64,000 nt of DNA, taken from contig NZ_AP022589.1 of NCBI RefSeq assembly GCF_010731755.1, positions 1,736,001 to 1,800,000 of the forward strand, read 5' to 3'. Numbering within the stretch: the first letter of the stretch is position 1; every line of letters begins with the position of its first letter. Position numbers and translations under genes: made by a program. This document shows, in pieces, positions 30,316-46,607 of this stretch. This DNA comes from Mycolicibacter minnesotensis (lineage in GTDB: Bacteria; Actinomycetota; Actinomycetes; Mycobacteriales; Mycobacteriaceae). The notes below the pieces were generated by a model. That model saw nothing but the letters and a program-made list of their open reading frames with translations, was not told the DNA's origin and searched no databases.

Positions 30316-33300
30316 TCAGGACGGGCTGGCCTCGCCCGCCCGCACCATCTCCCATTCCCCGTCGGAGACCAGATTCCGCCAGTCGACAGGCAGGGCATCC
30401 AACGCGTCCTCGATGCAGAACCAGACCGATTCCAGCGGCGACGCTCCCGGAGCCGCGGCGGTGATCCGACTCTCCACGTCGTAGTTCGGCGCATGCGGTG
30501 CGTCGCTGAACGGTGCGAGCCCGTTGATCGCGTCCATGACGTAACGCCGCAACTCGGCGTAGGGCATTCCGCGCAGCTCCTCGGGCAGGATCGGGCGGCC
30601 GAAGATGTAGTCCTGGGCGGTATGGCCGTAGGGCACCTCGAGCTTGTGCGGCAATGGCTCCTCGGGCAGTCCTCCCGCGAAGTACAACGGCACGATCGGC
30701 ATCGACATCTCCAGCGCCATGTCCAGGAGCGTGGACGTCAGTCGCTCAACCCGCTGACCCGAGCTGACGCTGCGTGTGCCGTCGGCATGGACCATCACCG
30801 ATACGCCGAGGGAGGCCGCCTCCCGCTTGAGTTCGTCCACCAGAGCGAAAAACTCCTGCGGCTGCTGCTGGTCGAAATAGCGGAGGTGCCCCAGTTCCTT
30901 GCCCGCGGCGGCGTCGATCATGCGCAGCAGGTTTCCCACCCAGCCGGTCTCGTGCTTGGCGTGTCCGATGGTGACCACCTTGGTTCCGGTCAGCCAGGAT
31001 CCGATCGTGGTGCCGAGCAACGATTCGACCTGCACCTGGTGATTGGCCAACACCAACACCGGACGGCCGTAGACGGCCGCCATCGCGGCAGGGTCGGTCA
31101 CCACGACGTGCCGCACGTAGCGGGCCAGTACCGCGCCGAGGGCAAGCTCGCCAAACCATCCGTCGGGCATGCCCGCGCTCTGTGTCCACCACGCTCGGAT
31201 CGGCTCCCAGTCGGTCACCGAAGTCGCACGCGCACGGCACGCACCCGGACCCAGGGTCTCGACCTCGACGGTGATCCGCTCCAGCGGCAGCGCCGGACAG
31301 CTCACCTGACCATCGACGACCTGAACCTGGCAGGGGTGGATGGCGTTGTGGACGGCGTCGGCCACCGCCTCCTTGGTCGCGATCTCGACCATCAGCGCAT
31401 CGCCCTGAGCGTCAGATCCGTAGACCGCCTGCAAGGTGCCTTTGAACCAGTCCAGAGTTGCCATCCGGGCGGCGTCGAGTGCCAGCACACCGCGGCCCAG
31501 TCGCTCGCTCAACGATAGCCCGGGGACCGCCCGCCGTTCTCCCATGAACGCGCGCCGCTCCGGCCCGCCGACCTCCGCCAATGGCCCCTTGCTCAGCAGA
31601 AACTCGGCCATCCGGATTCGCGCCCACGGCCGTCCTCCGGCACTGAGCCACAGGTCGAACGTCGGCATGCGGCCTTCGTCGTCATCGAAGCCGACGAATC
31701 GGGCTTGCACGTCAACGGTTCCCGCCACGGGGGTCTCGGCGTAGAACCGAGCCGACAGAATGCGGCGCGGAAACCCCACATCGGGGTCGAGCGCATGAGC
31801 GTAGGAGGCCGGGTCGGCGGTGCCACTGGTCCACACGCTCATGGCCGTGTGCGGTACGACATGCAAGGCACCGTCGAGCAGTCCCGGCTGCAACTCACCG
31901 ATCGGAACGGCGCAGCGATCGATGGCGAGGGTTCCACTGGAACCGTTGCGGCCGATCCGGGCGCCGTCGATCAGGGTCGCGAACGCCGGACCGTGAAAGA
32001 CGGTTCCGTCATAGGGATCGGCGTAAGGCACCGCACCGTCCAGCGGCGCCGGCAGCTCCGGCTCGCCGGTGTAGGAAGCGGCGGTGACGACGTGGGCGTG
32101 CGCGTGAATCTCCCAGCGGGACAACTCCGCTCGTGGTGCGTCCCGCCACACCTCCAGGCGGCCGCGGAAACGGCCACACTCGGGCAGCTGCTCGAGCACC
32201 ACCCGCAGCTGCTTCGGGGCGTCGACGACGACCCACCGCACCATCTGGACGTCGGTGACCTCGACCACCTTGGCGCCACCGGTGGCCCGGACCGCGGCCT
32301 GCGCGAACAGGTCCATCACCGACATCATCGGCAGCGAGGGAATGACGTAGGTGGGACAGTGGTCGACGACCCACGCGTCGGTGGCCGGGTCCAGCGTCAC
32401 GTCCATCGTGGTTGTCGTGGCCACCGCTGCGGGCGCAGGCGCCACCGCGGTCGTGGGTATCGCCGCGGCCTGCGCCGGCGACCTCTGCTCACCGGTACCG
32501 ACGACGATCCGCATGCCCAGGTTGCTGGCGGTGTAGATCCGTTTGTCGTCCACCCACAGCGACGCCTCGGCCACCGCGAGGATGCCGGCGTCCTCTCGAA
32601 CGATCCTGGTGATCTCCACCTGCGCCGTGATCTGCTTGTTGGTGGGAATGATCTGACCGCGATAACGCCATGTCATGGCGTCATGAAGGGCGGCCGGCTC
32701 GAACCGCGCCGACGGTCCCGCCTCCTTGCCCAGGCCGAGGTCCAACATCCCGAACTGCAGGAGCTGCAACAGCATTTCGATACCCAGCGATCCGGGTTGG
32801 ACCGGGTCCTGGAAGAAGTGCGCCTTGAAATACCACTCGCCGGGGTTGACGTCTTTGACCCCGCGCCATTGGCCCAGCCCGGCGGCGCCGCCGGAAGGCC
32901 AGCGCCCGGTCACCCGGTCGACCATCAACAACATGGGCTCGGCCAGCCGCGCTCCGGCACCGAAGAACTCAGCGGGCTGCGTGGTCAGGTCGACCGCAGG
33001 CGCCACGCTGGCCTGAGCCAGTGCGGCACGTTGTGCATCACTGACCGGCAGGCCCACCTGGTTCTGCAGCGCTTCGCGTTTGAAGTAACCGAACACGGTG
33101 TCGAAGGTGTAGACGGGTCCGTCGTCGTCGAGGACCTCACCGTCGAAAGCGACGATGATGGTTCCGGCGGCCTTGGCGAGGCTCTTCAGCTTCACCTTGA
33201 TACGCAGCGTTCCGGTAGCCGGAGTGACTTCACGGTGCTGGGTTCCGGTGCCGTCGAGGTTGCGGAAGAACAGGTCCGCCTCGCCGTCCAACGGACAGCC

Positions 33301-36300
33301 CACATAGCTGGCCAGCCAGCCGCATGGCTGCAGCGCGACCTCCATGAGCACCGCGTTGGGCATCGTCTCATGCCCGTTGGCCGCACCGTTCTGGACGAAG
33401 TACCAGGCGTCGGCGGGGACGTCGTACTCCACGACGACTTCGGCACCGGCCTTCATCACGCCGGTCTCGCCCACCAGTTCGGTGACCCGGGACATGAAGT
33501 GATACGGCGGGCCGGGCAGCCGGGCCGCCTTGCGCGGAGAGTCGAACTTCTCGAACAGCGGCCCGAACGCCATGGACGGCTTGGCGATCGCGCTGGCCAG
33601 CATCGCCTGGTAGTCGTAGCGGAACCCGTTGACTTCGGCGACCGGTTTGGGTTCGACGTAGCCTTCGAGCTCTGCGGCGCCGGTGTCCATCGGCCATCCC
33701 GGTGACAGCTTCAGGCCCATCCGCTCGCAATGGAAGGCGGGAAGTCCGTCGACGGTGCAGAGCAGGTCGGCGAACAGGGTCGGCTCGGGACCGGCGATCA
33801 CCTCCCGGACGAACACCTCGTAGACGACTTCCCGCGACTGCGGGGTGACCTGGCCCCGGCAACGCAGCTTGTACGTCTCGAAGGGAACGGGTTCGAAGCG
33901 CCAGCCGTCGCAGTCCAGGGTCATGCCCAGTGCGGTCATGTAGATCGCCATGGTCTGCATGGTCGCCTCGTACATGAGCGTGCCAGGCATGCAGGGATCG
34001 TTTTTGAAATGGCCGGCGAAGAAGCAGTTTTCGGGAGTTACCGGCGCAACCGCGCGCAGATATCCACGGCCCCACGGGCCGCCGGTGAGGTCGAGGTCGG
34101 TCACCTCGTCGACGAACAGCATGTCGCCGCCGTGGATGCGGGGTGGGCGGGTGTGGCTGCCGGCCTTCTCGAAGCCCGGGCCGAACGTCCGCCAGATCTC
34201 GCCGCCCGCCATGGCCTCCAGGTCGGCGCGCTGCAGTGAGGTGCGCGCCGTCTGGGCGGGAGTCACCTCCATGGGCCCGCTGACCGTCTGGTCTTCGGGA
34301 CGCCACAGCACTCCGCCGGAGGCGGCCAGCTCTTCGTCGGTGAAGAATCCGGCCTGGCCATTGCGCATCGACATGCGCTCGACACCGTCGATGGTGCAGT
34401 CGTAGTGGAAGAAGAACAGGCGCACATCGCCTTGCCGGGCGTGTCCGTCCACGTGAATGTCAAAGCGCAGGGTGTCGCCGATCTCGGGAAGGCCCCCCAG
34501 GTAGGTCACCTCGCAGCCGAGCAGTCGGTACACCCGCTCGCTCTTGTTGAGCAGATCCGCGCCCATCCAGGAGATGAGCATGAGGTCGGCCTGACCGCTT
34601 TCGATCATGATTCCGGCGGGCATCCGGGCCTGCTGCAGCCACCATGAATCGGCGGTGACATCGGTTTCGGTCCACAGTGTTCCGGTGCCGTGTTTGGCCG
34701 GTTCGGCGTCGATGCCCAGTAAGCGATCCGCCAACAGCAGGGGCGGCTCGGGCATCCGGACCTGCCGTGCGTACTGGTCCTGCTCGGCGAACGCCGGCCC
34801 GAAGATCTCGGAGATGTTGCCCGAGGAGTGCACCCGCAGGCCGTCTTTGTCGAGGGTGAGCCCGACCGGCTCGCGTTTGACCGTCGGCGCCGGGACCACC
34901 TTGTCTGCGGGCCTGACAGGCTGGTTCGACCGGCTGGCACCTGCCGACGGGTTGACGGGGCCGACCGGTGTGGGAGCCTCGTTCACCGCTGCGGGCGGCG
35001 GCGTCTCAACCCGGAGCGACGTGGTTGCGGACACCTCCAGCGGCAGCCGTGCGAGCGACTCCGCGACGGTGGCCAGCGCCGGGGGAATCGGGAGTTGTGT
35101 CGGCATGAATCGCTCCAGTTGATGAGGGGGGTTCGGGCCCGGGACCGCCACCCGCGGCGGCAGTACGACCGGTGGCAGGTGCGCCGGGAAGTTGAGCCGG
35201 ATCGGTTTCTTGCCGGTGTCGGCCGGCGCCGGCGCGATCAAGGTCGCGGACTGCTCCTTGGTCGCCGACGACGTGAGCGTGACCTGTTGCCGCTGGTCGG
35301 CCATACCGGTGAGTTCGACAGCGACGCAACGCTGCTCAGAAGTCCAGGGCTCACCGTCCGGCCATACGCCCAGTGCGCCGTAGAGCACTCCGGCGGCCAC
35401 GTGCAGCAGTCCCGATGCGGCGTGCGCGTGGCCCAACAGCGCCGACAGATTCACCGCACCGGGGGCGGTGCCCAGGTGCAGTCGTTCGGCGTCGGGCTCT
35501 TCCTCGACGAGCAGGGTGGCGTAGACGGTGTCGCCGTCACGGCGGGCGTCGGCGGCGCGCTTGAGCACGAGGATGACGGCGGCGTCGCCGGGAATCTGCT
35601 CGTCGGCGTGCAGCAGGGCACGCGCAGCTGCCTCGTGCACGGGCTCACAGCTCAGGTCCACAGCACCCACCACGGCGGCGTCGATCTCGCCGCGGCGCAG
35701 CGCGCGCGCCGCCATCTCCAGCGCGGTGGTGCCCGAGAGTTGTTCTCGTGACACCGTGAAACTCGGACCACGCAGGTCGAATTGGCTGTTGAGCCGATTC
35801 GCCACAATGTTGGGCATGGCACCCACAACACCGGCGGCCGTCCAGCCCTGCACGACACCGTCCCGCGCCACGGCAAGCTGATCGGCGTCCTCGACGTCGT
35901 CCGCCAACCGCCAGCGCAGCCCGAACCGGGCGACTTCGGCGTCGCAGCCCATCCCGACGACCACGCTGGTGGTGTCCGGCGGCAAGCCCTTGATGATCTC
36001 GCCGATGTTCAGGGCCGCACCCAGCAGCGCCAGCTGTTGGGGCTGTGTCTGTTTCAGGTCCGCGGGCGGGAAACGGGTCTGTGTCAGATCCAGGCAGATC
36101 TCCGTCATCCGGGCCCCGCGGAGCGTCGCGCCCGAGGCGGCGGGTATCGGCTGACAGGTCGCGACGTGCTCTGCCACCGAGGCCGTGTCATGGCCGTCGC
36201 CGAGCAGCAGGCTCAGGCCGATGATCGCGATCTCGGGGTCAGGCGCAGCCGTCGGGAGGACCGGCGGCGCCGGCGAGACCGCACGTCCTTCGACCCATTC

Positions 36301-37596
36301 TTCGAGGAGCAGGTGAGCGTTGTTGCCACCGAACCCGAAGTTGTTGACCGCGGCACGGCGCGGACCGTCGCAGTCCCAGGGCTCGGCATCGGTGAGCAGC
36401 CGGAAAGGCGAGTCGGCGAGGAAGGGCAGCGGATCATCGGCGTGCAGAGTCGGGGGCCGCACACCGGCACGCATCGCCGCCAGTACCTTGATTGCGCCCG
36501 CTGCCCCGGACGCCGTGATCGAATGGCCGAGATTGGATTTCAGTGATCCGATGGGCACGCCGGACATTCCGGTGAAGATGCGCGCCATGCTCATCAGTTC
36601 GGTCAGGTCGCCGCGCGAGGTTCCGGTGGCATGGCATTCGATCAGGGAGATGTCCTGGGGCTCCAGTCCGGCCATCTCATAGGCCAGCCGCATCGCGCGT
36701 TCCTGCCCGTCCTGGGAGGGCACCAGAAAGCCATGGCCGCGGCCGTCGTTGCTCAGTCCGACGCCGCGGATCAGGCCCAGGATCGGGTCGCCGTCGGCGA
36801 TCGCATCATCGAGACGCCGCAACACCAGGATCGCTGCGCCTTCGGCGGGCACCAGGCCGTCGGCACCGGTGTTGAACGGGCGTGAGCGGCCCGTGCGGCT
36901 CAGGGCCTGCAAGGCGGTGAAGCCCACGTGCAGCAGCAGATCACTCGCCCCGTTGATGCCGCCGGCGAACATCACGTCCGCGGTGCGGTCGTGCAACCGG
37001 TCGCAAGCCAGCTTGATGGCGTACAGCGATGACGCGCAGGCGGCGTCGAGGGCGGTGGCCCCTCCGGTCAGGCCCAGGGCCTGAGCGATCAGGTGCGCGG
37101 GCAAGCCAGACATGAAGCGATTGCGCCAGTCCACCCCGGACTGGGAGCCGGCTAGTCCTGCCCGCCATACGTTTTCGGCGAGGTCGGTCATCTTCTTGGT
37201 GGGATAGCTCAGGTTGCCCAGCGCGATACCGGCCGCGCCCGGCACTTCACCCGCCCGCCATCCGGCGCTGTCGAGCGCCTGCCGGGCGGCTTCAACGCCC
37301 CACCGGTAGAGCGGGTCCAGGCCGACGAGGTCGTCGGCGTCCAAGAACAGCCCGCCTGGGTTGAACACGTCGTCGAATCCGCGGACGTAGCCGCCGCGAT
37401 CCGACCAGGTGTGGTCGAGTTCGGGCACCTCGGTCGGGGCACACAGGACGCGTGCCGCCGATACGCCCCAGTGGTCGGGGCCGGGCGAGCCCAGCACATC
37501 CCGGCCGGCGCGCACCGTGTTCCAGAGTTGACTCGCGTTCAGTCCCCCGGGCAGGACACAGCCCTGCCCGACGATCGCGATGGGATCAAACTTCAC
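30316..37596 (-). CDS. pfaC: PUFA/secondary-lipid synthase PfaC-like subunit (KS-CLF-DH-DH-DH-AGPAT)
   Basis: This 2426-residue megasynthase subunit belongs to the iterative PUFA (secondary lipid) synthase family. Domains in order: ketosynthase (1-430; Cys187 in DAACASSL, ECHATGTSRGD, KSNLGHS); chain-length-factor KS lacking the Cys (about 455-770; SREQLSG at the active-site position); a Pro/Ala linker; four FabA-type hotdogs (about 930-1700), of which the second has GHFKNDPCMPG and the fourth AHFFQDPVQPG, with the catalytic His, while the first and third look degenerate; a PKS-type dehydratase (about 1740-1990; DHCPTYVIPSLP, DGALHVVP); and a C-terminal acyltransferase of AGPAT type (about 2140-2380; NHQVQVES, HX4E in place of HX4D). 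This resembles myxobacterial Pfa3, where the AGPAT passes the chain to lysophosphatidate. ATG 37596 is 21 bp after pfaA. Confidence 0.9.
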   Translation of the reverse strand: MKFDPIAIVGQGCVLPGGLNASQLWNTVRAGRDVLGSPGPDHWGVSAARVLCAPTEVPELDHTWSDRGGYVRGFDDVFNPGGLFLDADDLVGLDPLYRWGVEAARQALDSAGWRAGEVPGAAGIALGNLSYPTKKMTDLAENVWRAGLAGSQSGVDWRNRFMSGLPAHLIAQALGLTGGATALDAACASSLYAIKLACDRLHDRTADVMFAGGINGASDLLLHVGFTALQALSRTGRSRPFNTGADGLVPAEGAAILVLRRLDDAIADGDPILGLIRGVGLSNDGRGHGFLVPSQDGQERAMRLAYEMAGLEPQDISLIECHATGTSRGDLTELMSMARIFTGMSGVPIGSLKSNLGHSITASGAAGAIKVLAAMRAGVRPPTLHADDPLPFLADSPFRLLTDAEPWDCDGPRRAAVNNFGFGGNNAHLLLEEWVEGRAVSPAPPVLPTAAPDPEIAIIGLSLLLGDGHDTASVAEHVATCQPIPAASGATLRGARMTEICLDLTQTRFPPADLKQTQPQQLALLGAALNIGEIIKGLPPDTTSVVVGMGCDAEVARFGLRWRLADDVEDADQLAVARDGVVQGWTAAGVVGAMPNIVANRLNSQFDLRGPSFTVSREQLSGTTALEMAARALRRGEIDAAVVGAVDLSCEPVHEAAARALLHADEQIPGDAAVILVLKRAADARRDGDTVYATLLVEEEPDAERLHLGTAPGAVNLSALLGHAHAASGLLHVAAGVLYGALGVWPDGEPWTSEQRCVAVELTGMADQRQQVTLTSSATKEQSATLIAPAPADTGKKPIRLNFPAHLPPVVLPPRVAVPGPNPPHQLERFMPTQLPIPPALATVAESLARLPLEVSATTSLRVETPPPAAVNEAPTPVGPVNPSAGASRSNQPVRPADKVVPAPTVKREPVGLTLDKDGLRVHSSGNISEIFGPAFAEQDQYARQVRMPEPPLLLADRLLGIDAEPAKHGTGTLWTETDVTADSWWLQQARMPAGIMIESGQADLMLISWMGADLLNKSERVYRLLGCEVTYLGGLPEIGDTLRFDIHVDGHARQGDVRLFFFHYDCTIDGVERMSMRNGQAGFFTDEELAASGGVLWRPEDQTVSGPMEVTPAQTARTSLQRADLEAMAGGEIWRTFGPGFEKAGSHTRPPRIHGGDMLFVDEVTDLDLTGGPWGRGYLRAVAPVTPENCFFAGHFKNDPCMPGTLMYEATMQTMAIYMTALGMTLDCDGWRFEPVPFETYKLRCRGQVTPQSREVVYEVFVREVIAGPEPTLFADLLCTVDGLPAFHCERMGLKLSPGWPMDTGAAELEGYVEPKPVAEVNGFRYDYQAMLASAIAKPSMAFGPLFEKFDSPRKAARLPGPPYHFMSRVTELVGETGVMKAGAEVVVEYDVPADAWYFVQNGAANGHETMPNAVLMEVALQPCGWLASYVGCPLDGEADLFFRNLDGTGTQHREVTPATGTLRIKVKLKSLAKAAGTIIVAFDGEVLDDDGPVYTFDTVFGYFKREALQNQVGLPVSDAQRAALAQASVAPAVDLTTQPAEFFGAGARLAEPMLLMVDRVTGRWPSGGAAGLGQWRGVKDVNPGEWYFKAHFFQDPVQPGSLGIEMLLQLLQFGMLDLGLGKEAGPSARFEPAALHDAMTWRYRGQIIPTNKQITAQVEITRIVREDAGILAVAEASLWVDDKRIYTASNLGMRIVVGTGEQRSPAQAAAIPTTAVAPAPAAVATTTTMDVTLDPATDAWVVDHCPTYVIPSLPMMSVMDLFAQAAVRATGGAKVVEVTDVQMVRWVVVDAPKQLRVVLEQLPECGRFRGRLEVWRDAPRAELSRWEIHAHAHVVTAASYTGEPELPAPLDGAVPYADPYDGTVFHGPAFATLIDGARIGRNGSSGTLAIDRCAVPIGELQPGLLDGALHVVPHTAMSVWTSGTADPASYAHALDPDVGFPRRILSARFYAETPVAGTVDVQARFVGFDDDEGRMPTFDLWLSAGGRPWARIRMAEFLLSKGPLAEVGGPERRAFMGERRAVPGLSLSERLGRGVLALDAARMATLDWFKGTLQAVYGSDAQGDALMVEIATKEAVADAVHNAIHPCQVQVVDGQVSCPALPLERITVEVETLGPGACRARATSVTDWEPIRAWWTQSAGMPDGWFGELALGAVLARYVRHVVVTDPAAMAAVYGRPVLVLANHQVQVESLLGTTIGSWLTGTKVVTIGHAKHETGWVGNLLRMIDAAAGKELGHLRYFDQQQPQEFFALVDELKREAASLGVSVMVHADGTRSVSSGQRVERLTSTLLDMALEMSMPIVPLYFAGGLPEEPLPHKLEVPYGHTAQDYIFGRPILPEELRGMPYAELRRYVMDAINGLAPFSDAPHAPNYDVESRITAAAPGASPLESVWFCIEDALDALPVDWRNLVSDGEWEMVRAGEASPS

Positions 37597-37617
37597 TTCG
37601 TATCAGCCGCCGTCGAA

Positions 37618-40600
37618 TCAGCCGCCGTACGGATACAACTCGAGTCGTTTGAGACTGACCACCAGCTGGTCGTCCGCGTCGATCAGGTCGAGGTCGCACA
37701 CGGCGCGGCTGGTCTTGGCTTCCCCTCCACTGAGCACGCATCGTAATCCAGCGCCCAGAGGACCGGAACCGTAGCGCACGATCTCGCCGATACGCAGCGG
37801 AAGGACGTTGCGGCCCAGCAGCTCGTAGCTCCAGACCAGTGCTGCCTGAAGGCAGCCGTCGAGGGCGGCCGGGTCGGTGGCCCAGCCCTCCCCCACCCAG
37901 CCCACCGACGTCAGCCCGTGCAGGTCGGCGACCGCGGTCGTCTCAGCGCAGTCCATTCCGTCGAGCACCTGGAATGCCGGCCCGTGGAACAGGGCTCCAC
38001 CGGTGTAGCAGGCCGAGCGGTCCAACCCACGGATTCCCGGCGCTGTCACCTGCACGCTGGGCACCGCGGCTGCGCTGGAACGCATTTCGATGGTGGCCGA
38101 GTAGTAAGCGGTCGAACCTTCGATGTCGGAAAGCGTCATGGTCAGCAGTTCGGGCCGCTCCTCGGTGGGAACGCAACGCACAAGCAGGGGGTTGCCGTGC
38201 TTCTCGAATTCGTAGAGCGTCACGCCGCGCAGCACCTTGAGGTCTAGCACCCGGTCCACGTGGTGGCCGGGCCGCAACGCCTCGGCCATCCGGATGAACC
38301 ATTCGAGCGCCTGGACCACGGGCAGCACTACATTGCCCTGGACTCGGTGATCGAGCAGGTAGGGCTGCCGAGCAACGTGTGCGAGCACTCGCGCGACTCG
38401 GCCCTCGGGCGGAATCGGATGCGTGGGCAGGCCCGCCAGCACGCCGTCGCCCAGCGTCACCTCCGGGCTCGCGGTATCACCGTCGAGAACTTCGGCGACA
38501 AATGCGCGGGCACCGTCGGCGAGCGGAATCAACGAGATGCCGCGCGACTCGAACATTGCCTTGAGCCCCGGGGTCACCATGCCGGAATCCCAAGGACCCC
38601 AGCCCAAGGCGCGGACCAGGCAGGCGGGGCCGCGGCGCGCCTGTTCGGCCAGGGCCACCTTGTTGAGGATTTCATTGGCCATGGCGTAGTCGCTTTGGCC
38701 GACGTTTCCGCTGCGCGCGGCTACCGACGAGAACAGACAGATGACTTTGAGCGCGTCGCCCGCCGTCGCATCCAGCAGAGCGCAGGCTCCACCGACCTTG
38801 GTCTCGAAGACCCGGTCGAAACCGTCGAGGGTCTTCTTGTGCAACGGCGCATCGGCCAGCACGCCCGCCCCATGCACCAGGCCGGTAATGGGACCGAATT
38901 CGTTGCGCACGGTGTCCAGCAAAGCGCCCAGCTGCGTGGCATCACGGACATCGGCTGCGGCGTAGCGGACGCGGGAGCCGGCCGCGGTCAGCGCGGCCAG
39001 GGTCGCCCGGACCTCGCGGTCGGCCAGGATGCGTTGCGCCTGCTGCTCCAGCTGCTTGGGCGTGACCTTGAGGCCTTGCGCGGCAGCTGCGGCCAGCAGT
39101 GCCCGCTTGAGTTCTGCATCGGTGGCAAGCCCCGCAACCTCCGGCGGTTCGTCGCTGAGTTCGGTGCGCCCGATCAACACGAATGCCGCCTGGGTCTGCT
39201 GCGCCAGGGCGATCACCGAACCGGCGGTCACACCGCGGGCGCCGCCAGAGACCACGATCACGTCGGCCGAGCCGATCCGGTGGGTGCGGCTGGTGACCTG
39301 CTGCTCGCCCGCGACCACCGTGATTCGGCCGTGTGAGCTGCCGAGGCCCACTTCGAGTTCCGCACCGCCGGAGAGGAGTTCGTCGGCGATCCGCTCGGCG
39401 ACGCCCACCGGCGACTGTGTCCCAACGGCGATGTCGATCGCCTTGACCTGCGCGCTGGTCCATTCCTGGGCGGCGGTCTTGGCCAGGGCGCCGATACCGC
39501 CCGACCACGCCCGCAGCCCGGGGTCGGTCAGGAAGCCGAAGGTACCGCCGGTGTCTTGAACGGTGACGAAGACCCCACCGCGCTCGGCGAATGACGCTGC
39601 GACGCGCTGCGCGTCGGCGAACAGCACCCGGTTGACGGCCAGCGCCTCTTCGCGGCTGGCGACCGGCCGCAGTCCACCGAGATGGACGACCGCCTCGGTG
39701 TCGGCGCCGGGCTCGGCGACGAGAGTGGCGCCGATGCCGTGGGTGCGCAGAATCGCGGCCAGGGCCTCGGCCGTCTCAGTCAATGCGGCCTGGGCCGCCG
39801 GTGCCGTCACGATCTCGACGGTCCTGGCGGTGTACAGACCGGGCATGCCCATCCCGCTCACCGGAGCGGCGGTGGCGCCTACCGCGTAGCGCGCCACCTC
39901 CGCTCCGGTCAACTCAAAAGGGGCGCGATCACCTGCCGCCAATCCGTTGGGCACCACCAGATCCGGTGGCGAGGAACCCATCAGGGACTGCAGGTAATCC
40001 ACGATCTCCTGCAACGTCACCAACGCCGCCATCGTCGCCGTCTCCACCTCAGGCAACGACGGAACACGATCCTGCACCGCCGACAAGATCTCCACCCGCT
40101 TGATCGAGTCGATCCCCAGATCGGCTTCCAGAGCCATCGACAGATCCAGCATCTCCACCGGATAACCCGTCTTGTCAGCAACCACCGCCAACATGTCCCC
40201 CACCAGATCCACACCCGCAACGGGCGCCGAAGCAGCAGGAGCAAGGGCAGGCACCACCGGCGCAGCCACCGCGACAGGAGCAGGCACCGGAGCGGCCGGA
40301 GCAGCCACCGGACCCATCAGGGACTGCAGGTAATCCACGATCTCCTGCAACGTCACCAACGCCGCCATCGTCGCCGTCTCCACCTCAGGCAACGACGGAA
40401 CACGATCCTGCACCGCCGACAAGATCTCCACCCGCTTGATCGAGTCGATCCCCAGATCGGCTTCCAGAGCCATCGACAGATCCAGCATCTCCACCGGATA
40501 ACCCGTCTTGTCAGCAACCACCGCCAACATGTCCCCCACCAGATCCACACCCGCAACGGGCGCCGGAGCAGCAGGAGCAAGGGCAGGCGCCACCGGCGCA

Positions 40601-40623
40601 GCCACCGCGACAGGAGCAGGCAC
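37618..40623 (-). CDS. pfaA: PfaA C-terminal part: ACP-ACP-KR-DH (split by frameshift)
   Basis: This 1001-residue frame carries the second half of PfaA. After an Ala/Pro linker come two identical ACPs (phosphopantetheine Ser in LGIDSIKRVEIL, about residues 58 and 170), a ketoreductase (VIVVSGGARGVTAGS about 455; LVHGAGVLAD; SDYAMANEILNK with the Tyr/Asn pair, about 550-690) and a product-template/PKS-type dehydratase hotdog (about 745-990; LLDHRVQGNVVLP, DGCLQAAL). The first codon, GTG 40623, lies in the linker after ACP1 and has no ribosome-binding site, so this is very likely not a gene of its own but the continuation of the KS-MAT-ACP1 frame, separated from it by a 4-bp deletion at about 40638. 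It ends 22 bp before pfaC. Confidence 0.82.
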   Translation of the reverse strand: MPAPVAVAAPVAPALAPAAPAPVAGVDLVGDMLAVVADKTGYPVEMLDLSMALEADLGIDSIKRVEILSAVQDRVPSLPEVETATMAALVTLQEIVDYLQSLMGPVAAPAAPVPAPVAVAAPVVPALAPAASAPVAGVDLVGDMLAVVADKTGYPVEMLDLSMALEADLGIDSIKRVEILSAVQDRVPSLPEVETATMAALVTLQEIVDYLQSLMGSSPPDLVVPNGLAAGDRAPFELTGAEVARYAVGATAAPVSGMGMPGLYTARTVEIVTAPAAQAALTETAEALAAILRTHGIGATLVAEPGADTEAVVHLGGLRPVASREEALAVNRVLFADAQRVAASFAERGGVFVTVQDTGGTFGFLTDPGLRAWSGGIGALAKTAAQEWTSAQVKAIDIAVGTQSPVGVAERIADELLSGGAELEVGLGSSHGRITVVAGEQQVTSRTHRIGSADVIVVSGGARGVTAGSVIALAQQTQAAFVLIGRTELSDEPPEVAGLATDAELKRALLAAAAAQGLKVTPKQLEQQAQRILADREVRATLAALTAAGSRVRYAAADVRDATQLGALLDTVRNEFGPITGLVHGAGVLADAPLHKKTLDGFDRVFETKVGGACALLDATAGDALKVICLFSSVAARSGNVGQSDYAMANEILNKVALAEQARRGPACLVRALGWGPWDSGMVTPGLKAMFESRGISLIPLADGARAFVAEVLDGDTASPEVTLGDGVLAGLPTHPIPPEGRVARVLAHVARQPYLLDHRVQGNVVLPVVQALEWFIRMAEALRPGHHVDRVLDLKVLRGVTLYEFEKHGNPLLVRCVPTEERPELLTMTLSDIEGSTAYYSATIEMRSSAAAVPSVQVTAPGIRGLDRSACYTGGALFHGPAFQVLDGMDCAETTAVADLHGLTSVGWVGEGWATDPAALDGCLQAALVWSYELLGRNVLPLRIGEIVRYGSGPLGAGLRCVLSGGEAKTSRAVCDLDLIDADDQLVVSLKRLELYPYGG

Positions 40624-40938
40624 CGGAGCGGCCGGAGCACCGGACCCATCAGGGACTGCAGGTAATCCACGATCTCCTGCAACGTCACCAACGCCGCCAT
40701 CGTCGCCGTCTCCACCTCAGGCAACGACGGAACACGATCCTGCACCGCCGACAAGATCTCCACCCGCTTGATCGAGTCGATCCCCAGATCGGCTTCCAGA
40801 GCCATCGACAGATCCAGCATCTCCACCGGATAACCCGTCTTGTCAGCAACCACCGCCAACATGTCCCCCACCAGATCCACACCCGCAACGGGCGCCGGAG
40901 CAGCAGGAGCAAGGGCAGGCGCCACCGGCGCAGCCACC
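39977..40938. repeat. Tandem ACP-coding repeats (3 copies, 336/332/partial bp)
   Basis: Three copies of an ACP-plus-linker unit lie head to tail, starting at 39977, 40313 and 40645. Reading by eye, the ACP core (about 240 bp) is identical in all three, silent sites included. The linkers of the first two differ only by two substitutions and a 4-bp gap: unit 39977-40312 is 336 bp (112 codons) but unit 40313-40644 is 332 bp. The third copy departs from the others after about 40938. Such identity points to recent duplication or gene conversion. It also makes the region prone to assembly error. Confidence 0.92.
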
Positions 40939-43900
40939 GGAGCCGGAGCCGGCGGGGCCGGCATGGTGGCGACCGGAGTGGGAGCCGCCGCGGGCGCAGG
41001 CGCCGGAGCAGGCGGTGCACTGTAGGACGCAACCGGTGCCGACGGGGGCGCCGGCATTACCTGCGTGCCGTTGGTCACCGGCGCGGCGGGCGGCGCGGCA
41101 GGTGCGGCCGGAGGTGCAGGCGGCGCGGCAGGTGGCGCAGGCGGCGCCACGGTGCCCGCACCGTTGTGCACCGGGGCGGCCACCGGGTGAGCCGGGGCAG
41201 CCGCTACGCCGTAGGTGGCCACCGGCTGCGGCGGCACCACCGCGGTCGCGGTGGGGAACGCCAGCTGGGCTACCGGCATCGGCGTCATTCCCGCGCTCGA
41301 GACGAGGGTCTGCAGCAAGCCCTGCAAGTGGGCGATGGTCTGCTGCATGCTGCCGAGGGCACCGACCATGTGCGTGACCATCTCGGCACCTGGACCGGAC
41401 ACCAGGGGCGAGGTGACCATGGGGACCTGCGCAGCCTGAACCGGGACCGGGACGTGCGTCGGGACATGTGCCGGCAGACCGTTCGCTACAGGAACGATTG
41501 GGTCAACTGCTGTCATCGTGGGCTCCGATACGGTCGGGTGTCCGTTGTGGTCACTGCGGGGGTTGGGCTTCTCAAATTTTTCGGACTTCTGAGCGGGCCG
41601 GGACACCGGCTCGTCGTTGATTTCGGGTCGGCCGAAGTTGGTGCCGCTGAGCTTGATCGTCAGCTTCGGTGCCGGGCGGGTCCGGGGATCGTCTCCGTGG
41701 CGGTAGTCGGCCCACAGTGCCTGGAAGTTCATCGGGACGCCGGCAGCCACGAGCTGGGCCAGGCCCATCCACAGCGATCGGATCCCATTGCGCCCCTTGG
41801 CGTCGAGGGCGACAGCGACGTGGTCCTGACCGGCCAGGCACTTGCCGACGAGGTTGGTGAGCACACTGCCCGGTCCCACCTCGACGAAGGTGCGGGCGCC
41901 CGCGGACCACATGGCCTGAACCTGCTCGACGAACCGGACCGGCTGAGCGATCTGGTTGGCCAGCGTGGCCTGCATCTGCTCGGCGCTGCCGCCGTAGGGT
42001 GCCGCGGTCGCATTGGCGTAGACGGGCACCTGCGGCACCCCGAACGGGATCCCCGCCAGGTATGCGCCGAACGGCGCCGCCGCCGAACTGACGATCTCGG
42101 AGTGGAAGGCGGTGGCGACATCGAGGAGCCGCGCATTCATGCCGGCCGCACCGAAACGCTGTGCGGCGTCGGCGATCGCCGCACTGTCACCGGAGAGCAC
42201 CACCTGGTTGGGGGCGTTGTGGTTGGCGATGACGACCGACAGTCCCCACTCGCCCAGCAGGCGGCTGACCTGCTCGGCGGGCGCGGTCACCGCACACATC
42301 GCGCCGTCGCTGCTGGCGGCCGCCTGGGCCATCAGCGCGCCGCGCGCACGTGCGATCAGCAGTGCGACGTCGTCACTGATCACTCCCGCCGCGCACAGGG
42401 CGCTGACCTCACCGAAGCTGTGGCCCCCGACGGAGACCGGCGCGATGCCCAGCGAACGGACCACCGACATCAGGCTCAGGCTGTGTGCGCCGATACCGGG
42501 CTGCGCCCACTCGGTCTTGGTCAGCTCGGCAGCCTGCGCCGCCCGGTCCTCGTCGGTGAACGCGGTCTTGGGCCAGACCACCTGGTGCAGGTCGCGGTCT
42601 GCGTTGAGCATGCCGGCTCGGGCGAGCTCCCACGGGGCCAGGGCGGGTTCGTAGAGCTGCGGAATGTCGGCGCCCATGCCGATGTATTGGCTGCCCTGGC
42701 CGGGAAACAGCAGCGCTACGGGTCCGGCCTGGCGGCTGGAGTAGTAGTAGCCCTTGGGCGAGCTGAAGGACGCGTCCGCACCCGGTGTCTGGAGTTTGGC
42801 GGCGGCTTCGTCGAGCATCGTGCCCAGGGTCTCGACGCTGTTGGCCACGACGGCGAGCCGGTGTGGCTGGGCTGCGTCGTAGGCCGCCTGCGTGCTGTAG
42901 GCGAGGTAGCTCAGCATGTCGGGCGAGTCGACCAGCGACGTGGCCAGCTCCGTCGCCGCAGCCGCCAACGCCGGCGCGGAGTCCGCGCCGAGGATGATCA
43001 GCTCAGATTCCCAGGACCGGTAGCGCGGCGCGTGCTTTCCCGCCCCGGCGTACTCCTCGAGCGTGATGTGGAAGTTCGTGCCACCGAAGCCGAAGGCACT
43101 CACCGAGGCGCGCCGCGGGACGTCCTTGTCGGCGATCCAGGGCTTGGACTGCGTGGACAGGTAGAACGGCGTGGATTCGATCTCCAGGCCCGGGTTGGGC
43201 CGGTCGACCTTGATGGTCGGCGGCAGGACCTTGTGATGCAGTGCCATCACGGTCTTGAACAGGCCGCAGGCCCCGGCTGCACCCTTGGTGTGACCGACCT
43301 GGGACTTGACCGATCCGACGGCGCACCATTGGCGGTCTTGGCGGCCCGACTCGTCGAACACTCGCCGTAGGGAGGTGAACTCGGCGACGTCGCCGGCCTT
43401 GGTGCCGGTGCCGTGCGCCTCGACCAGCCCGACGGTCTCCGGGCCGTAGCCGGCGGCCTCATAAGCCCGGCGCAGGGCCTTGGCCTGGCCGTCGGGGCTT
43501 GGGGCATAAATGCTTTTGGCCCGCCCGTCCGAGGACGTGCCGATGCCTTGGATCACCGCGTAGATACGGTCTCCGTCTCGTTCGGCGTCGTCGAGCCGCT
43601 TGAGAGCCAGCATCGACAGGCCCTCACCGAGCATGGTGCCGTCGGACTGGTCGGAGAACGGGCGGCAGTCGCCGGTGCGCGACAGCGCGGTGACCTTGGC
43701 GAAGCACATGAACATGAAGATGTCGTTGAAGGCGTCGACGCCCCCGGCGATAACCATGTCGGCCTCGCGCAGGTACAGCTCGTGCAGCGCGATCTCGATC
43801 GCGGCCAGCGAACTCGCACAAGCGGCGTCCACCACACAGTTGGTTCCGCCGAGGTCGAATCGGTTGGCGATCCGGCCGGCGATGACGTTGCCGAGCAGGC

Positions 43901-44438
43901 CCGGGAAGGTGTTCTCCTGCCAGGGCGTGTACCCGGCGGCGACGCTGTCGCTGAACGCCGTCACCTCGTCGTCGGAGAGGCCGGCTGCGCGCAGCCCCCG
44001 TTCCCAGATCGGCCGGTGCAGGCGACCACTCATGTAGCCCGACATCTCGGTGCCGCCGGAGGATCCCAGGACCACGCTGACGCGTTCGCGATCAATACCG
44101 GAGATGTCGCCGCCGGCGTAGTCTTCCAGCACCTGCTGGGCGACCCTCAACGCTAGGAGCTGGGCCGTGTCGGTCGCGGGGAGCACGTTCGGCGGGATAC
44201 CGAAGTCCATCGGCGAGAAATCGACGGATGGCAGGAATCCGCCGCGTCGGGCATATACCTTGTCAGGCGTGCGCGGATCAGCATCGAAGTAGTCGTCGAT
44301 CCGCCAGTGCGACTCGGGTACGTCGGAGAACAGGTCGGCACCCTCGACGATGTTGCGCCAGAACCGCTCGGCTTCAGGCGACCCGGGGAACAGTGCGCTG
44401 ACGCCGACTACTGCGACAGGTGGATGTTTGGCTGCCAC
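40353..44438 (-). CDS. pfaA: PfaA N-terminal part: KS-MAT-ACP (reads out of frame after about 40640)
   Basis: This is the first part of the central PUFA-synthase subunit. A ketosynthase (1-455) has Cys207 in DAACASSL, EAHGTGTKAGD and VGHTKGAAG. A malonyl-CoA:ACP acyltransferase (about 570-880) has LFPGQGSQYIGMG and the nucleophile in GHSFGE (about residue 674). A long Pro/Ala-rich linker leads to ACP1 (LGIDSIKRVEIL, Ser about 1221). After the conserved end of ACP1 (YLQSLMGP) the frame reads an Arg/Trp/Leu-rich nonsense sequence to a stop at 40353: the reading of ACP2 in the wrong frame. GTG 44438 is preceded by AAGGAGA. The gene starts 260 bp after pfaD. If the frameshift is real, the synthase is broken. 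If it is a sequence error, the whole protein would have about 2270 residues. Confidence 0.86.
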   Translation of the reverse strand: MAAKHPPVAVVGVSALFPGSPEAERFWRNIVEGADLFSDVPESHWRIDDYFDADPRTPDKVYARRGGFLPSVDFSPMDFGIPPNVLPATDTAQLLALRVAQQVLEDYAGGDISGIDRERVSVVLGSSGGTEMSGYMSGRLHRPIWERGLRAAGLSDDEVTAFSDSVAAGYTPWQENTFPGLLGNVIAGRIANRFDLGGTNCVVDAACASSLAAIEIALHELYLREADMVIAGGVDAFNDIFMFMCFAKVTALSRTGDCRPFSDQSDGTMLGEGLSMLALKRLDDAERDGDRIYAVIQGIGTSSDGRAKSIYAPSPDGQAKALRRAYEAAGYGPETVGLVEAHGTGTKAGDVAEFTSLRRVFDESGRQDRQWCAVGSVKSQVGHTKGAAGACGLFKTVMALHHKVLPPTIKVDRPNPGLEIESTPFYLSTQSKPWIADKDVPRRASVSAFGFGGTNFHITLEEYAGAGKHAPRYRSWESELIILGADSAPALAAAATELATSLVDSPDMLSYLAYSTQAAYDAAQPHRLAVVANSVETLGTMLDEAAAKLQTPGADASFSSPKGYYYSSRQAGPVALLFPGQGSQYIGMGADIPQLYEPALAPWELARAGMLNADRDLHQVVWPKTAFTDEDRAAQAAELTKTEWAQPGIGAHSLSLMSVVRSLGIAPVSVGGHSFGEVSALCAAGVISDDVALLIARARGALMAQAAASSDGAMCAVTAPAEQVSRLLGEWGLSVVIANHNAPNQVVLSGDSAAIADAAQRFGAAGMNARLLDVATAFHSEIVSSAAAPFGAYLAGIPFGVPQVPVYANATAAPYGGSAEQMQATLANQIAQPVRFVEQVQAMWSAGARTFVEVGPGSVLTNLVGKCLAGQDHVAVALDAKGRNGIRSLWMGLAQLVAAGVPMNFQALWADYRHGDDPRTRPAPKLTIKLSGTNFGRPEINDEPVSRPAQKSEKFEKPNPRSDHNGHPTVSEPTMTAVDPIVPVANGLPAHVPTHVPVPVQAAQVPMVTSPLVSGPGAEMVTHMVGALGSMQQTIAHLQGLLQTLVSSAGMTPMPVAQLAFPTATAVVPPQPVATYGVAAAPAHPVAAPVHNGAGTVAPPAPPAAPPAPPAAPAAPPAAPVTNGTQVMPAPPSAPVASYSAPPAPAPAPAAAPTPVATMPAPPAPAPVAAPVAPALAPAAPAPVAGVDLVGDMLAVVADKTGYPVEMLDLSMALEADLGIDSIKRVEILSAVQDRVPSLPEVETATMAALVTLQEIVDYLQSLMGPVLRPLRCLLLSRWLRRWRLPLLLLLRRPLRVWIWWGTCWRWLLTRRVIRWRCWICRWLWKPIWGSTRSSGWRSCRRCRIVFRRCLRWRRRRWRRW

Positions 44439-44698
44439 GGGTCTCCTTAAGCACGGCCTTGACGGAATACATCGAAAGCCTAAGTTTCGCTATCGGTGAC
44501 AGTGGGTCGAAGCTGGGGTTTCGCTGTTCATCCCGATGGCCAGACGTTGCCGGGACACTATCAGAATGTTGTAGCCATCACACATCGAAGAGGGCCGCCC
44601 GGGGCCCCCGCGTGCATTACAGTCGACCGTCCAAATGTCACGTATTTGATCACGCCAGCAGCGGGAATGCGCCGGCAGACCGCATCGTGACGGTCGCC

Positions 44699-46351
44699 CT
44701 AAACCGCCAGCGGGCGCGGGCTGTAGGCGAACGCCTTGGCCGGTACCGGCACCCCTGCGGAGCGGGCGGCACCGGCACGACTGATGTGCGCCGCGCCTTC
44801 GAGCAAGTTAAGCGCCACCTGGACGGCTTGCCGGTTTTCGCATGGCTCCAGATAGCTGTCGGCCACCCAGCTGTTGAACGCGCCCATGGCGGGGCCGCAC
44901 CAGACCTGATAGTCCAGGACTCGCTCGGGTACGCCGGTGATGGCCCACCGGCTCGACTGCCCGAGGTACCAGCGGAACACCAACGCCATCTGGTACTTCG
45001 GGTCCCGGGAGGCCAGTTCGAGCACCCCGGGGTCACGCTGTTGCCAGTACCGCTGGGTGTCCGCCCACACCTCGGCCACGGTGGTGCCCAGAATCTTCTC
45101 CAGCTCGGGGCCATGCTTGGCCACCACGGTGGCCAGATCGGGATTGCCCGCGTACCACTCGTAGAGCTTCTTGCCGCGCGGGGCGAACATCGTCCCCCGC
45201 TTGAGCACCTGCAGGTTGACGCCCATCTCGAACATGTCCGACGCCGGGGCCATCATCACGTCCGCGATCCCGGCCTTGGCCAGCATGGCGCGTCCGGGCT
45301 CCGAGAGGCCCGACTCCACGCAGGCCTGGTTGACGGTCCCGGTCAGCACATAGGCCGCGCCCATCGCGAAGGCGCCGGCGACCGCCTGCGGTGCGCCCAG
45401 GCCACCCGCCGCACCCACCCGCACCCGGCAGGTCAAGGGATGCTGTTGGGCCAGGGTGTCGCGCAGCATGACGATTTCGGAGAACAGCGCAGGCAGCGGG
45501 CGGTTGTCGGTGTGCCCTCCGCTGTCGGACTCCACCGTGATGTCCTCGGCTACCGGCACATACCGGGACAGCTCGGCTTCGCGCTCGGTCAGTTTTCCGG
45601 CCGCCACCAGCCCCGCGACCAGGGCCGCCGGCGCCGGTTCCATGAACATGCGCGCCACCTCCGGCCGCGACACCTTGGCCATCACGTGGTTGCGGCGCAC
45701 GATATTGCCGGCCGCGTCAGTGTCCAAGCCGGCCAGCGCGTAGTGCACCACCGCGGGCGTGAGCTTCATGAATGCCGAGGCCTCGACCACGGGGACTTTC
45801 CGCGCAATGAACAATTCGGCGACGCGCGTCTCGAGGGAGACCTCGTTGGGCGAGTGGATCAGGTTGGCGCCCCAGGCCAGGCCCGGCCGTCCCGCCAATG
45901 CGGTCTGGATCTCATCCAGACCGCGTTCGACGGCCTCGTAGGACAGTCCACCCGCGCCGAAGAAGCCCATCATTCCGGCCTCGGCCATGGCGATCACCAA
46001 AGCCGGCGTCGCAATGCCATTCGCCATCGCGCCGGTGACGTAGGGGAAGCGCACGCCGTGCGCCTCGCAGAACTCGCGGTCGCCCAGCCATTCGGGGTAG
46101 ATCGGCGGCAGTGTGCCCACCAGGGCCACGTCCGACTCGCCTGCGCCGACCACCTCACCGCCCAGGGCCAGACCCAGCATGCCGGTGACCGTCTCGCGCA
46201 CCACGTGCAGCGGGTGGCGGACGTAGCCGATGAGGTCTGCGATGTCGTTGGGAGCGAACGCGGCCGGCGCGCTCGTGGGGCGCCACCCCAGCGACGGGCC
46301 CGCGCCCGCCCCGGTCTGCTGCTCCAATACGGCTCCAGGTCGCTCGTTCAC
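44699..46351 (-). CDS. pfaD: PfaD-type enoyl reductase of PUFA synthase
   Basis: PfaD (Pfa1) is the trans-acting FMN-dependent enoyl reductase that works with the PUFA synthase, and related proteins serve trans-AT polyketide synthases. The 550-residue TIM-barrel belongs to the nitronate-monooxygenase-like fold. It has YVTGAMANGIATPALVIAMA, FFGAGGLSYEAVERGLDEI, WGANLIHSPNEVSLE and the FMN phosphate loop VGAAGGLGAPQA followed by GAAYVLTGTVNQAC. The C-terminal helical cap (about 400-540), with YQVWCGPAMGAFNSW, is the PfaD signature. I chose GTG 46351, preceded by GAGAGG; GTG 46372 would add seven residues. It is the first gene of the pfaD-pfaA-pfaC run and is divergent from an LPLAT gene across 256 bp. 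Confidence 0.92.
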   Translation of the reverse strand: MNERPGAVLEQQTGAGAGPSLGWRPTSAPAAFAPNDIADLIGYVRHPLHVVRETVTGMLGLALGGEVVGAGESDVALVGTLPPIYPEWLGDREFCEAHGVRFPYVTGAMANGIATPALVIAMAEAGMMGFFGAGGLSYEAVERGLDEIQTALAGRPGLAWGANLIHSPNEVSLETRVAELFIARKVPVVEASAFMKLTPAVVHYALAGLDTDAAGNIVRRNHVMAKVSRPEVARMFMEPAPAALVAGLVAAGKLTEREAELSRYVPVAEDITVESDSGGHTDNRPLPALFSEIVMLRDTLAQQHPLTCRVRVGAAGGLGAPQAVAGAFAMGAAYVLTGTVNQACVESGLSEPGRAMLAKAGIADVMMAPASDMFEMGVNLQVLKRGTMFAPRGKKLYEWYAGNPDLATVVAKHGPELEKILGTTVAEVWADTQRYWQQRDPGVLELASRDPKYQMALVFRWYLGQSSRWAITGVPERVLDYQVWCGPAMGAFNSWVADSYLEPCENRQAVQVALNLLEGAAHISRAGAARSAGVPVPAKAFAYSPRPLAV

Positions 46352-46531
46352 TCTTGGGTTCCTCTCGATCACCGGTGCCGAGTGCGCCTGGCGCAGAGCT
46401 GGCCAAACACGTAGCCCGGGGAAAACCAGGAGAGTTTCTCACGGACCGGCCGCGCTCACTAGGCGGGCGTTGACGAGCGGTGCCACGCTGGCCGTTTTCT
46501 TGGTCATTTGCGAGCCCGCCCTCATGACCCA

Positions 46532-46547: not shown

Positions 46548-46607
46548 CTTTTCTTGCTAACCTGGGCTGTATCGGCCCAGGGCTGGGCTGTGAAAGGACG
46601 GCACACC

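What the first reader, a model, noticed from the sequence alone, without database searches (positions are those of the whole stretch)
30316..46351. A PUFA/secondary-lipid synthase (pfaD-pfaA-pfaC) in a mycobacterium
Three minus-strand genes encode an iterative PUFA-synthase set: PfaD enoyl reductase, PfaA KS-MAT-ACPx3-KR-DH, and PfaC KS-CLF-DH-DH-DH-AGPAT. Mycobacteria make their familiar long polyunsaturated phleic acids with an ordinary type I PKS, so this would be a separate route to unusual lipids. No PPTase gene is nearby; the host PptT would have to activate the ACPs. The product is unknown. The family identity is from sequence; the lipid product is inference.
Basis: partly seen in the sequence, partly recalled or inferred. 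Interest (0 to 1): 0.85.

Follow-up and report, generated by a model that had tools for sequence, protein, structure and literature searches.

The report
PUFA synthase genes in mycobacteria
This mycobacterium carries a gene set laid out like the one with which soil myxobacteria make polyunsaturated fatty acids; about one in ten mycobacterial species sampled has it, but in this sequence one of its three genes is interrupted and no product has been shown.

The parts
44699..46372 (-). pfaD: enoyl reductase (ER), 557 aa
   Evidence: TIGR02814 590 bits over cut-off 449; best solved relatives are PUFA-synthase PfaD 6lkc and 4yx6, 480 and 475 bits, ahead of DfnA and MlnA (PKS enoyl reductases, recalled), 353 and 312 bits
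40353..44438 (-). pfaA, first ORF (1361 aa): KS, MAT, ACP1; its last ~100 residues are out of frame with the rest of the gene
   Evidence: TIGR02813 1040 bits over cut-off 1010
42897..44420 (-). PfaA ketosynthase with C-terminal extension (DAACASS, EAHGTGT, KSQVGHT)
   Evidence: Pfam, motifs
41826..42710 (-). PfaA malonyl-CoA acyltransferase (GHSFGE)
   Evidence: Pfam, motif
40659..40859 (-). ACP1 (GIDSIKRVEIL)
   Evidence: Pfam, motif
39976..40943 (-). ACP array: three 300-nt copies, 98-99% identical to the reference copy, spacing 332 and 336 nt; the frame changes between copies 1 and 2 in reading order
   Evidence: frames
37618..40623 (-). pfaA, second ORF (1001 aa): ACP2, ACP3, KR, PKS-type DH
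40327..40527 (-). ACP2
   Evidence: Pfam, motif
39976..40206 (-). ACP3
   Evidence: second PP-binding stretch in this ORF; AcpM model 140-216, below its cut-off; motif
38587..39258 (-). PfaA ketoreductase (GGARGVT; SVAARSGNVGQSDYAMAN)
   Evidence: Pfam, motifs
37627..38379 (-). PfaA PKS-type dehydratase DH1
   Evidence: Pfam PS-DH over cut-off, PKS_DH_N just under it; LLDHRVQGNVVLP read in the translation
30316..37596 (-). pfaC, 2426 aa: KS-CLF-DH2-DH3-DH4-AGPAT, one open frame
36274..37587 (-). PfaC ketosynthase, catalytic Cys and both His present
35497..36249 (-). chain-length factor (KS-like, no active-site Cys)
   Evidence: 6riw, deposited as ORF10, matches residues 5-650
34840..35496 (-). 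linker of 219 aa where Minicystis, Azospirillum and the second mycobacterial type have an AT; none found here
32503..34839 (-). two FabA-like dehydratase/isomerase domains DH2 and DH3, each with a degenerate and a His-bearing half
31447..32451 (-). PKS-like dehydratase DH4 (DHCPT motif)
   Evidence: Pfam 2e-4, below cut-off; homology 30-43% to the DH4 of 49 loci outside the T1 mycobacteria; motif
30397..31383 (-). AGPAT (PlsC-like acyltransferase), NHQVQVES and DGTR motifs
46554..47501 (+). divergent neighbour, acyltransferase of the PlsC/DAGAT kind; probably not part of the system
   Evidence: Pfam PF01553; beside the cluster only in L034 and L037 among the loci searched

Best explanation
It is a PUFA synthase operon of the type L layout. 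Three proteins build an acyl chain from malonyl units iteratively on the tandem ACPs of PfaA: MAT loads malonyl, the two KS (one with the CLF) condense, KR reduces, the DHs dehydrate, the FabA-like DHs also shift the double bond, and PfaD reduces where a saturated step is needed, leaving methylene-interrupted cis double bonds. The AGPAT at the end of PfaC then transfers the finished chain from the ACP to a lysophosphatidic acid (or a similar lysolipid), so the product enters phospholipid. Because the second AT is absent (as in Sorangium) and DH4 is present (as in the arachidonate maker Minicystis), a C18 n-6 product such as linoleic acid is the best single guess. Shown here: gene set, domain order, motifs, acyltransferase fold (predicted), low dN/dS, kinship, distribution. 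Inferred from the family: the reactions and their order, the acceptor, the chain length, and any activity at all in this strain, where pfaA is interrupted.
For: Family models. PfaD is closest to solved PUFA PfaD. Every PfaC domain is homologous to PfaC of the Minicystis and two Sorangium loci: KS-CLF 51-55%, DH2-DH3 55-57%, DH4 37-41%, AGPAT 38-39%. Motifs kept. AGPAT fold. AT absent from the linker, as in both Sorangium loci examined, present in Minicystis, Azospirillum and the one mycobacterial type 2 linker tested. dN/dS 0.05-0.11 between window and M. arupensis. Papers, passages seen: PMC4882568 (AGPAT as a type L feature; Sorangium makes only linoleic acid and lacks the AT), PMC6731297 (mechanism; presumed loading on the 2-position; DH4 and DH1 shape the product), PMC8436480.
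Against: pfaA is interrupted in this sequence. The mycobacterial AGPAT departs from the EGTR motif (DGTR here; AGTR, PGTR or SGTR in M. simulans, M. simiae and M. angelicum) and scores under the Pfam cut-off. AT absence, judged by linker length, is scattered: 19 of 45 non-T1 rows lack it, the state changes at least 8 times on the tree, and a clade of T1 with Sorangium is rejected (p 0.0006), so the Sorangium analogy for chain length is weak. No lipid data; no expression data.
Confidence: 0.68

Rival explanations
1. Same machinery, different product: a PUFA-synthase-like secondary-lipid synthase making a long polyene, olefin precursor or a special acyl chain for an envelope glycolipid, with the AGPAT acting on another acceptor.
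For: PUFA-synthase relatives also make special lipids (PMC13291983, passages and part of section 7; PMC3098273, passages: type L might feed olefin synthesis). The mycobacterial AGPAT has drifted at motif III. PatA, a mycobacterial membrane acyltransferase, is among the matches of the AGPAT model, though at lower Z (about 9-10) than PlsC (13.7).
Against: No neighbour gene is shared between the window's close relatives and the other T1 loci examined, within the flanks fetched; the best structural match is PlsC itself; no other listed ORF in the window exceeds 954 aa.
Confidence: 0.2
2. In this strain the operon is dead: the frame change in pfaA is real and stops synthesis of a whole PfaA.
For: Two frames in the sequence. 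Degenerate AGPATs with stops exist in G031 and G064, so loss does happen in the genus. The share of nonsynonymous codon changes in both pfaA pieces is a little higher on the window's branch than on the M. arupensis branch (25 of 151 against 19 of 156), though not significantly (Fisher p 0.33).
Against: No significant relaxation in either piece (p 0.32 and 0.52) and no stop codon in either; if real, the lesion is recent. Both pieces hold ACPs, and a naturally split pfaA is recorded for type H (PMC3098273, passages), so two polypeptides might still work.
Confidence: 0.35
3. The interruption is a sequencing or assembly artefact in a GC-rich array of near-identical repeats.
For: It falls in the repeat array; other loci also break there (M. 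simiae L067 and M. triplex L068; by ACP motifs in more than one frame or none in frame also M. nonchromogenicus L074, type 2 locus L064, and outside mycobacteria L103 and L144); no significant relaxation.
Against: The genome is one contig, and six other single-contig genomes (G016, G022, G069, G073, G110, G143) read through the array as one ORF, so the array can be assembled.
Confidence: 0.5

Closest known systems
Sorangium cellulosum pfa1-pfa2-pfa3 (no second AT; reported to make only linoleic acid, PMC4882568)
   Same: KS-CLF, DH2-DH3, DH4 and AGPAT in the same order, no AT found between CLF and DH2 in two loci
   Different: 37-56% identity by domain; T1 mycobacteria form their own deep clade, a joint clade with Sorangium is rejected; AGPAT motif III DGTR instead of EGTR
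Minicystis rosea and Aetherobacter PUFA synthases (type L with AT; AA/DTA and DHA; PMC6731297, PMC8436480)
   Same: gene order ER, PfaA, PfaC and domains as published; PfaC domains incl. DH4 shared with Minicystis by sequence
   Different: they have a second AT in PfaC (seen here for Minicystis); the window does not. Aetherobacter sequences were not compared here
Actinobacterial type L clusters of Streptomyces coelicolor and Nakamurella (PMC3098273)
   Same: pfaD at the 5' end and a fused PfaC; product unknown there too
   Different: not compared by sequence here; no mycobacterium is named as a carrier in the passages of that survey that I saw
   Same: pfa genes in the same genus
   Different: T2 PfaC has a longer CLF-DH2 linker (AT found in the one tested) and no DH4 or AGPAT hit; separate origin from T1 (p 4.6e-8 against one clade). 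Whether T2 equals the published hybrids was not tested
Marine EPA/DHA synthase pfaABCD (types A and B)
   Same: PfaA and PfaD family models
   Different: no separate pfaB; AGPAT fused to PfaC. No named marine gammaproteobacterial sequence was compared; the Persicobacter cluster, 33% identical, served only as outgroup

Membership tests
Type L (AGPAT) PUFA synthase | pfaD first, then PfaA, then fused PfaC, one direction | tested here: met
Type L (AGPAT) PUFA synthase | PfaA of KS-MAT-tandem ACPs-KR-DH in one polypeptide | tested here: not met
   All domains present but in two frames. One ORF in 12 of the 15 T1 loci holding the whole gene, window included. I take this as a lesion or artefact of this sequence, so the claim is that the operon is of this family, not that this copy is whole
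Type L (AGPAT) PUFA synthase | PfaC of KS-CLF-FabA-like DH-DH with C-terminal AGPAT | tested here: met
Type L (AGPAT) PUFA synthase | catalytic residues intact | tested here: met
   for KS, MAT, ACP, KR, DH1-DH4 and AGPAT motif I; AGPAT motif III has Asp for Glu
Type L (AGPAT) PUFA synthase | sequence kinship with myxobacterial AGPAT-ending PfaC | tested here: met
Type L (AGPAT) PUFA synthase | AT in the fused PfaC (part of the original description, PMC3098273; absent in Sorangium by PMC4882568) | tested here: not met
   not treated as defining because Sorangium, filed as type L, lacks it too
Type L (AGPAT) PUFA synthase | PPTase available | tested here: met
   two PF01648 genes over cut-off elsewhere in the genome; that one of them acts on these ACPs is inference
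Type L (AGPAT) PUFA synthase | makes PUFA | not testable with these tools
   no lipid data
Marine type A/B pfaABCD | separate pfaB acyltransferase gene | tested here: not met
   no further gene in the operon; the only pfaB-model hit is the MAT of pfaA, far below cut-off
Ordinary mycobacterial type I PKS (Pks2, Pks13) | reaches the curated PKS models | tested here: not met
   NF041183, NF040607 and NF045894 far below their cut-offs
PKS-NRPS-PUFA hybrid | PKS and NRPS genes beside pfa | tested here: not met
   no other listed ORF over 954 aa in the window

The most novel reading that the evidence does not exclude
Close to a tenth of mycobacterial species, including members of the M. terrae and M. 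simiae groups, make their own n-6 polyunsaturated fatty acids with a myxobacterial-type synthase and load them directly onto phospholipids (or onto mannoside lipids), a lipid class that I did not find described for mycobacteria in the library searched.
Probability: 0.45. Interest if true: 0.75.

Novelty: new member of a known kind. Interest (0 to 1): 0.6.

Why it matters
[quoted passage not shown] This extends it to a set of mycobacterial species, some of clinical interest (recalled), gives named strains (M. arupensis, M. virginiensis, M. paraense, M. simulans) in which a direct lipid test is easy, and adds an AT-less, DH4-bearing clade with low dN/dS for working out what sets PUFA chain length. 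If the product is a C18 or C20 n-6 acid, some mycobacteria carry precursors of host lipid mediators in their membranes; that last step is speculation.

Tried and rejected
Ordinary PKS: rejected, PKS models far below cut-off. Marine type: rejected by architecture; no named marine gammaproteobacterial PfaA was at hand, and an attempt to draw one through a Methylococcales locus failed. NRPS hybrid: rejected for this window. A conserved partner gene: not found. Window neighbours (PlsC-like, TetR, DAGK, GH, CruF, PPE, thioesterase and others) gave good matches only in 13 loci, all of the window's close relatives and at least two pairs of them one assembly twice; the other T1 loci examined have different neighbours. 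The fetched flanks are short (about 2.6 kb upstream of pfaD in most unnamed loci, up to 10 kb downstream of pfaC in the scan loci), so a distant partner is not excluded. Plasmid-borne T1 in mycobacteria: no mycobacterial record among 7 plasmid records with a match (records very near the window's genome may be left out there). Kinship of T1 with Sorangium or with T2 as one clade: rejected. Alignment A2 held one out-of-frame row and was replaced by A3 and A4. My motif pattern for the DH1 histidine was mis-specified and found nothing in any row, and my pattern for the AT serine found nothing even in linkers where Pfam finds an AT, so neither pattern is used as evidence. Invariance of the NHQV..ES motif in A3/A4 is partly by construction, since most of those loci were found with that motif; the independent check is 121 of 121 proteins of the protein search (window's own counted).
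Full report
What is there. The window lies in a 4.22-Mb single-contig genome, whose relatives in the tool are of its own genus; named hits place that genus as Mycobacterium in the wide sense. The nearest relatives with a species name are Mycolicibacter (M. arupensis, AGPAT 97% identical; M. virginiensis, 89% over the C-terminal query), so the host is probably of the M. terrae group (group membership recalled); the species was not determined. On the minus strand lie pfaD (46372-44699), two pfaA ORFs (44438-40353 and 40623-37618) and pfaC (37596-30316). Family scans give ER for PfaD; KS, MAT and one ACP for the first pfaA ORF; two ACPs, KR and PKS-type DH for the second; and KS plus three FabA-like stretches for PfaC. 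Names given below to unnamed G genomes rest on equal contig lengths and 22/40.

The interruption. The three ACP copies are 300 nt long and 98-99% identical to the reference copy; their spacings are 332 and 336 nt, and only the second is a multiple of three. The first ORF therefore leaves the frame after ACP1, and the second ORF takes up ACP2 onward. Of the 15 loci of this type that hold the whole pfaA, window included, 12 have it as one ORF; the window, M. simiae (L067) and M. triplex (L068, where no ACP motif was found in any frame) do not; a sixteenth locus, L050, is cut by its contig end. Other loci with ACP motifs out of frame are M. nonchromogenicus L074, the type 2 locus L064 and, outside mycobacteria, L103 and L144. 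ACP number is 2 or 3 in the 12 complete ORFs and up to 4 in a partial locus. On the branch to the window 12 of 88 changed codons in the KS-to-ACP1 piece and 13 of 63 in the KR-DH piece are nonsynonymous, against 6 of 76 and 13 of 80 on the M. arupensis branch: slightly more in both pieces, not significantly (p 0.32 and 0.52). A recent lesion and a sequence artefact both fit; I did not decide between them and put nothing back.

What kind of synthase. PfaD is closer to solved PUFA-synthase PfaD (6lkc, 4yx6; 480 and 475 bits) than to DfnA and MlnA (353 and 312 bits). The PfaC KS-CLF matches 6riw (deposited as ORF10) over residues 5-650. Mycobacterial PKS models (Pks2, Pks13) score far below their cut-offs. 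Each PfaC domain aligns with PfaC of Minicystis rosea and of two Sorangium cellulosum strains, KS-CLF at 51-55%, DH2-DH3 at 55-57%, DH4 at 37-41% and AGPAT at 38-39% identity. That layout is type L, for which the AGPAT is called characteristic (PMC4882568, passages). The original description of type L gives an AT in the fused PfaC and does not mention the AGPAT in the passages I saw (PMC3098273).

The missing AT. Between CLF and DH2 the window has 219 residues; the mycobacterial T1 rows have 201-300 (except L071, whose aligned pieces nearly abut), Minicystis 752, Azospirillum lipoferum 643, mycobacterial type 2 rows 644-735, the two Sorangium loci 359 and 491. Pfam finds an AT in the Minicystis, Azospirillum and type 2 (L029) linkers tested, though for L029 just under the cut-off, and none in the linkers of the window, M. 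simulans and both Sorangium loci. Sorangium is reported to make only linoleic acid, and its lack of the AT has been offered as the reason (PMC4882568, passages; PMC8436480, passages, also lists it among producers of a mixed set of PUFAs). DH4, which in Yarrowia experiments shifts the product and loses that effect when its active-site His is changed (PMC6731297, passages), is found in 39 of 40 T1 mycobacterial locus rows, the exception being the second M. intermedium copy L095; several of these rows are the same genome twice. Its His is kept in all T1 rows shown. From this I guess a short n-6 product. The guess is weak: AT absence by linker length is scattered over the tree, with at least 8 changes and 19 of 45 non-T1 rows lacking it, and a clade of T1 plus Sorangium is rejected.

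Distribution and history. PfaD over the cut-off: 41 of 198 genomes of the genus, 43 hits. I fetched 40 of those 43 places (not fetched: the window itself, G174 and one of two in G113). Fifteen are of the window's type (T1), 24 of a second type (T2, one of them in G023, which also has T1) and one other (G031), judged by identity to the window's proteins; T2 loci cut by contig or fetch ends were called by PfaD with or without PfaA. The window's AGPAT is found in 19 of 198 genomes of the genus; in G031 and G064 it contains stops. In a sample of the family it is found in 4 of 201 genomes, all of the same genus (1 of 31 genera). A scan of one genome per species with a single short peptide pattern gave 129 confirmed places, of which the best 80 were kept: 26 mycobacterial (L070-L095) and 54 others, among them Sorangium, Minicystis, Azospirillum, many myxobacterial and other proteobacterial MAGs, some acidobacterial ones and a few Acidimicrobiales. 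In a tree of 66 rows T1 (21 rows) is one clade and T2 (7 rows) another (SH-aLRT 100 each), T2 lying with Azospirillum, Rhodospirillaceae and a Methylococcales MAG, and T1 on its own deep branch; its order relative to the T2 and myxobacterial groups is unresolved. One clade of T1 and T2 is rejected (p 4.6e-8). The genus thus probably acquired PUFA-type synthases at least twice. Transfer into mycobacteria is the simplest reading, but direction and donor are not shown.

Selection and neighbours. dN/dS between the window and M. arupensis is 0.05 (pfaD), 0.06 and 0.09 (the two pfaA pieces) and 0.11 (pfaC). Flanking genes are shared only among close relatives of the window (13 loci), and other T1 loci examined have other neighbours, so the functional unit is most likely the three genes. 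Two PPTase genes lie elsewhere in the genome.

Literature. I searched the held library for mycobacteria together with secondary lipid/pfaA, polyunsaturated fatty acid synthase, pfaD, antiSMASH/PUFA, PUFA synthase, and Mycolicibacter or M. terrae with polyunsaturated (listings, most papers not opened). The only report of mycobacterial pfa genes that I saw is PMC13291983 (passages and part of section 7): PKS-NRPS-PUFA hybrids in M. fortunisiensis and Mycolicibacterium sp. CBMA 234. In Nocardia a KS/AT/ACP/ACP/KR protein was noted as pfaA-like without a product (PMC4035055, passages). PMC12895367 (passages) mentions mycobacteria only through Pks13. Phleic acids, C36-C40 polyunsaturated chains of mycobacteria, belong to trehalose polyphleates (PMC11633156, passages); that a type I PKS makes them is recalled. 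Most subscription papers are not in this library, the primary paper on the myxobacterial synthases among those not read.

Verdict. It is a new member of a known kind in an unexpected genus, with a directly testable lipid prediction.

Noticed in passing
window 39976-40943: The three ACP copies are 98-99% identical at the DNA level, while the PfaA pieces differ by dS about 0.3 from the sister species: the array is being homogenised or was recently duplicated. ACP number varies among relatives.
   Followed up: partly
24 loci among L029-L066 (e.g. L029, L051, L056): A second pfaD-pfaA-pfaC type (T2; longer CLF-DH2 linker, no DH4 or AGPAT hit) is at least as common in the genus sample as the window's type; in the T2 loci whose ORFs I listed the ORFs beside pfaC are at most 957 aa.
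   Followed up: partly
L040, L044, L078, L080, L089: T1 clusters outside the window's relatives sit near core-type genes: a coaD-like transferase and a pyruvate carboxylase piece (L040), a formyltransferase and an ArsP-type permease (L044), the permease (L080), an SMC protein (L078), an AMP-binding enzyme followed by an unannotated 2186-aa ORF (L089). From recall, in M. tuberculosis this neighbourhood holds the PDIM/PGL lipid locus.
   Followed up: partly
L085, L095; L080, L081: M. intermedium has two T1 copies, one in each T1 subclade; the M. numidiamassiliense assembly shows two copies with identical scores near one contig end.
   Followed up: no
G031 C1:1877461-1878366; G064 C1:3423175-3423855; G076 C3:382459-383779: Degenerate remnants: AGPAT with stops (G031, G064) and a PfaD match in pieces (G076), signs of repeated loss.
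   Followed up: no
G000 C1:3492629-3496382: KS pieces with internal stops and an AT piece close by in the window's own genome: probably a decaying PKS elsewhere.
   Followed up: no
window 51656-54431: A cytochrome P450 and a 3-(3-hydroxyphenyl)propionate-hydroxylase-like FAD enzyme lie side by side beyond the cluster.
   Followed up: no
L058 15225-18479: In M. simulans a fused MFS transporter / cyclic-nucleotide-binding / patatin protein is encoded directly upstream of pfaD, overlapping it by a few bases.
   Followed up: no
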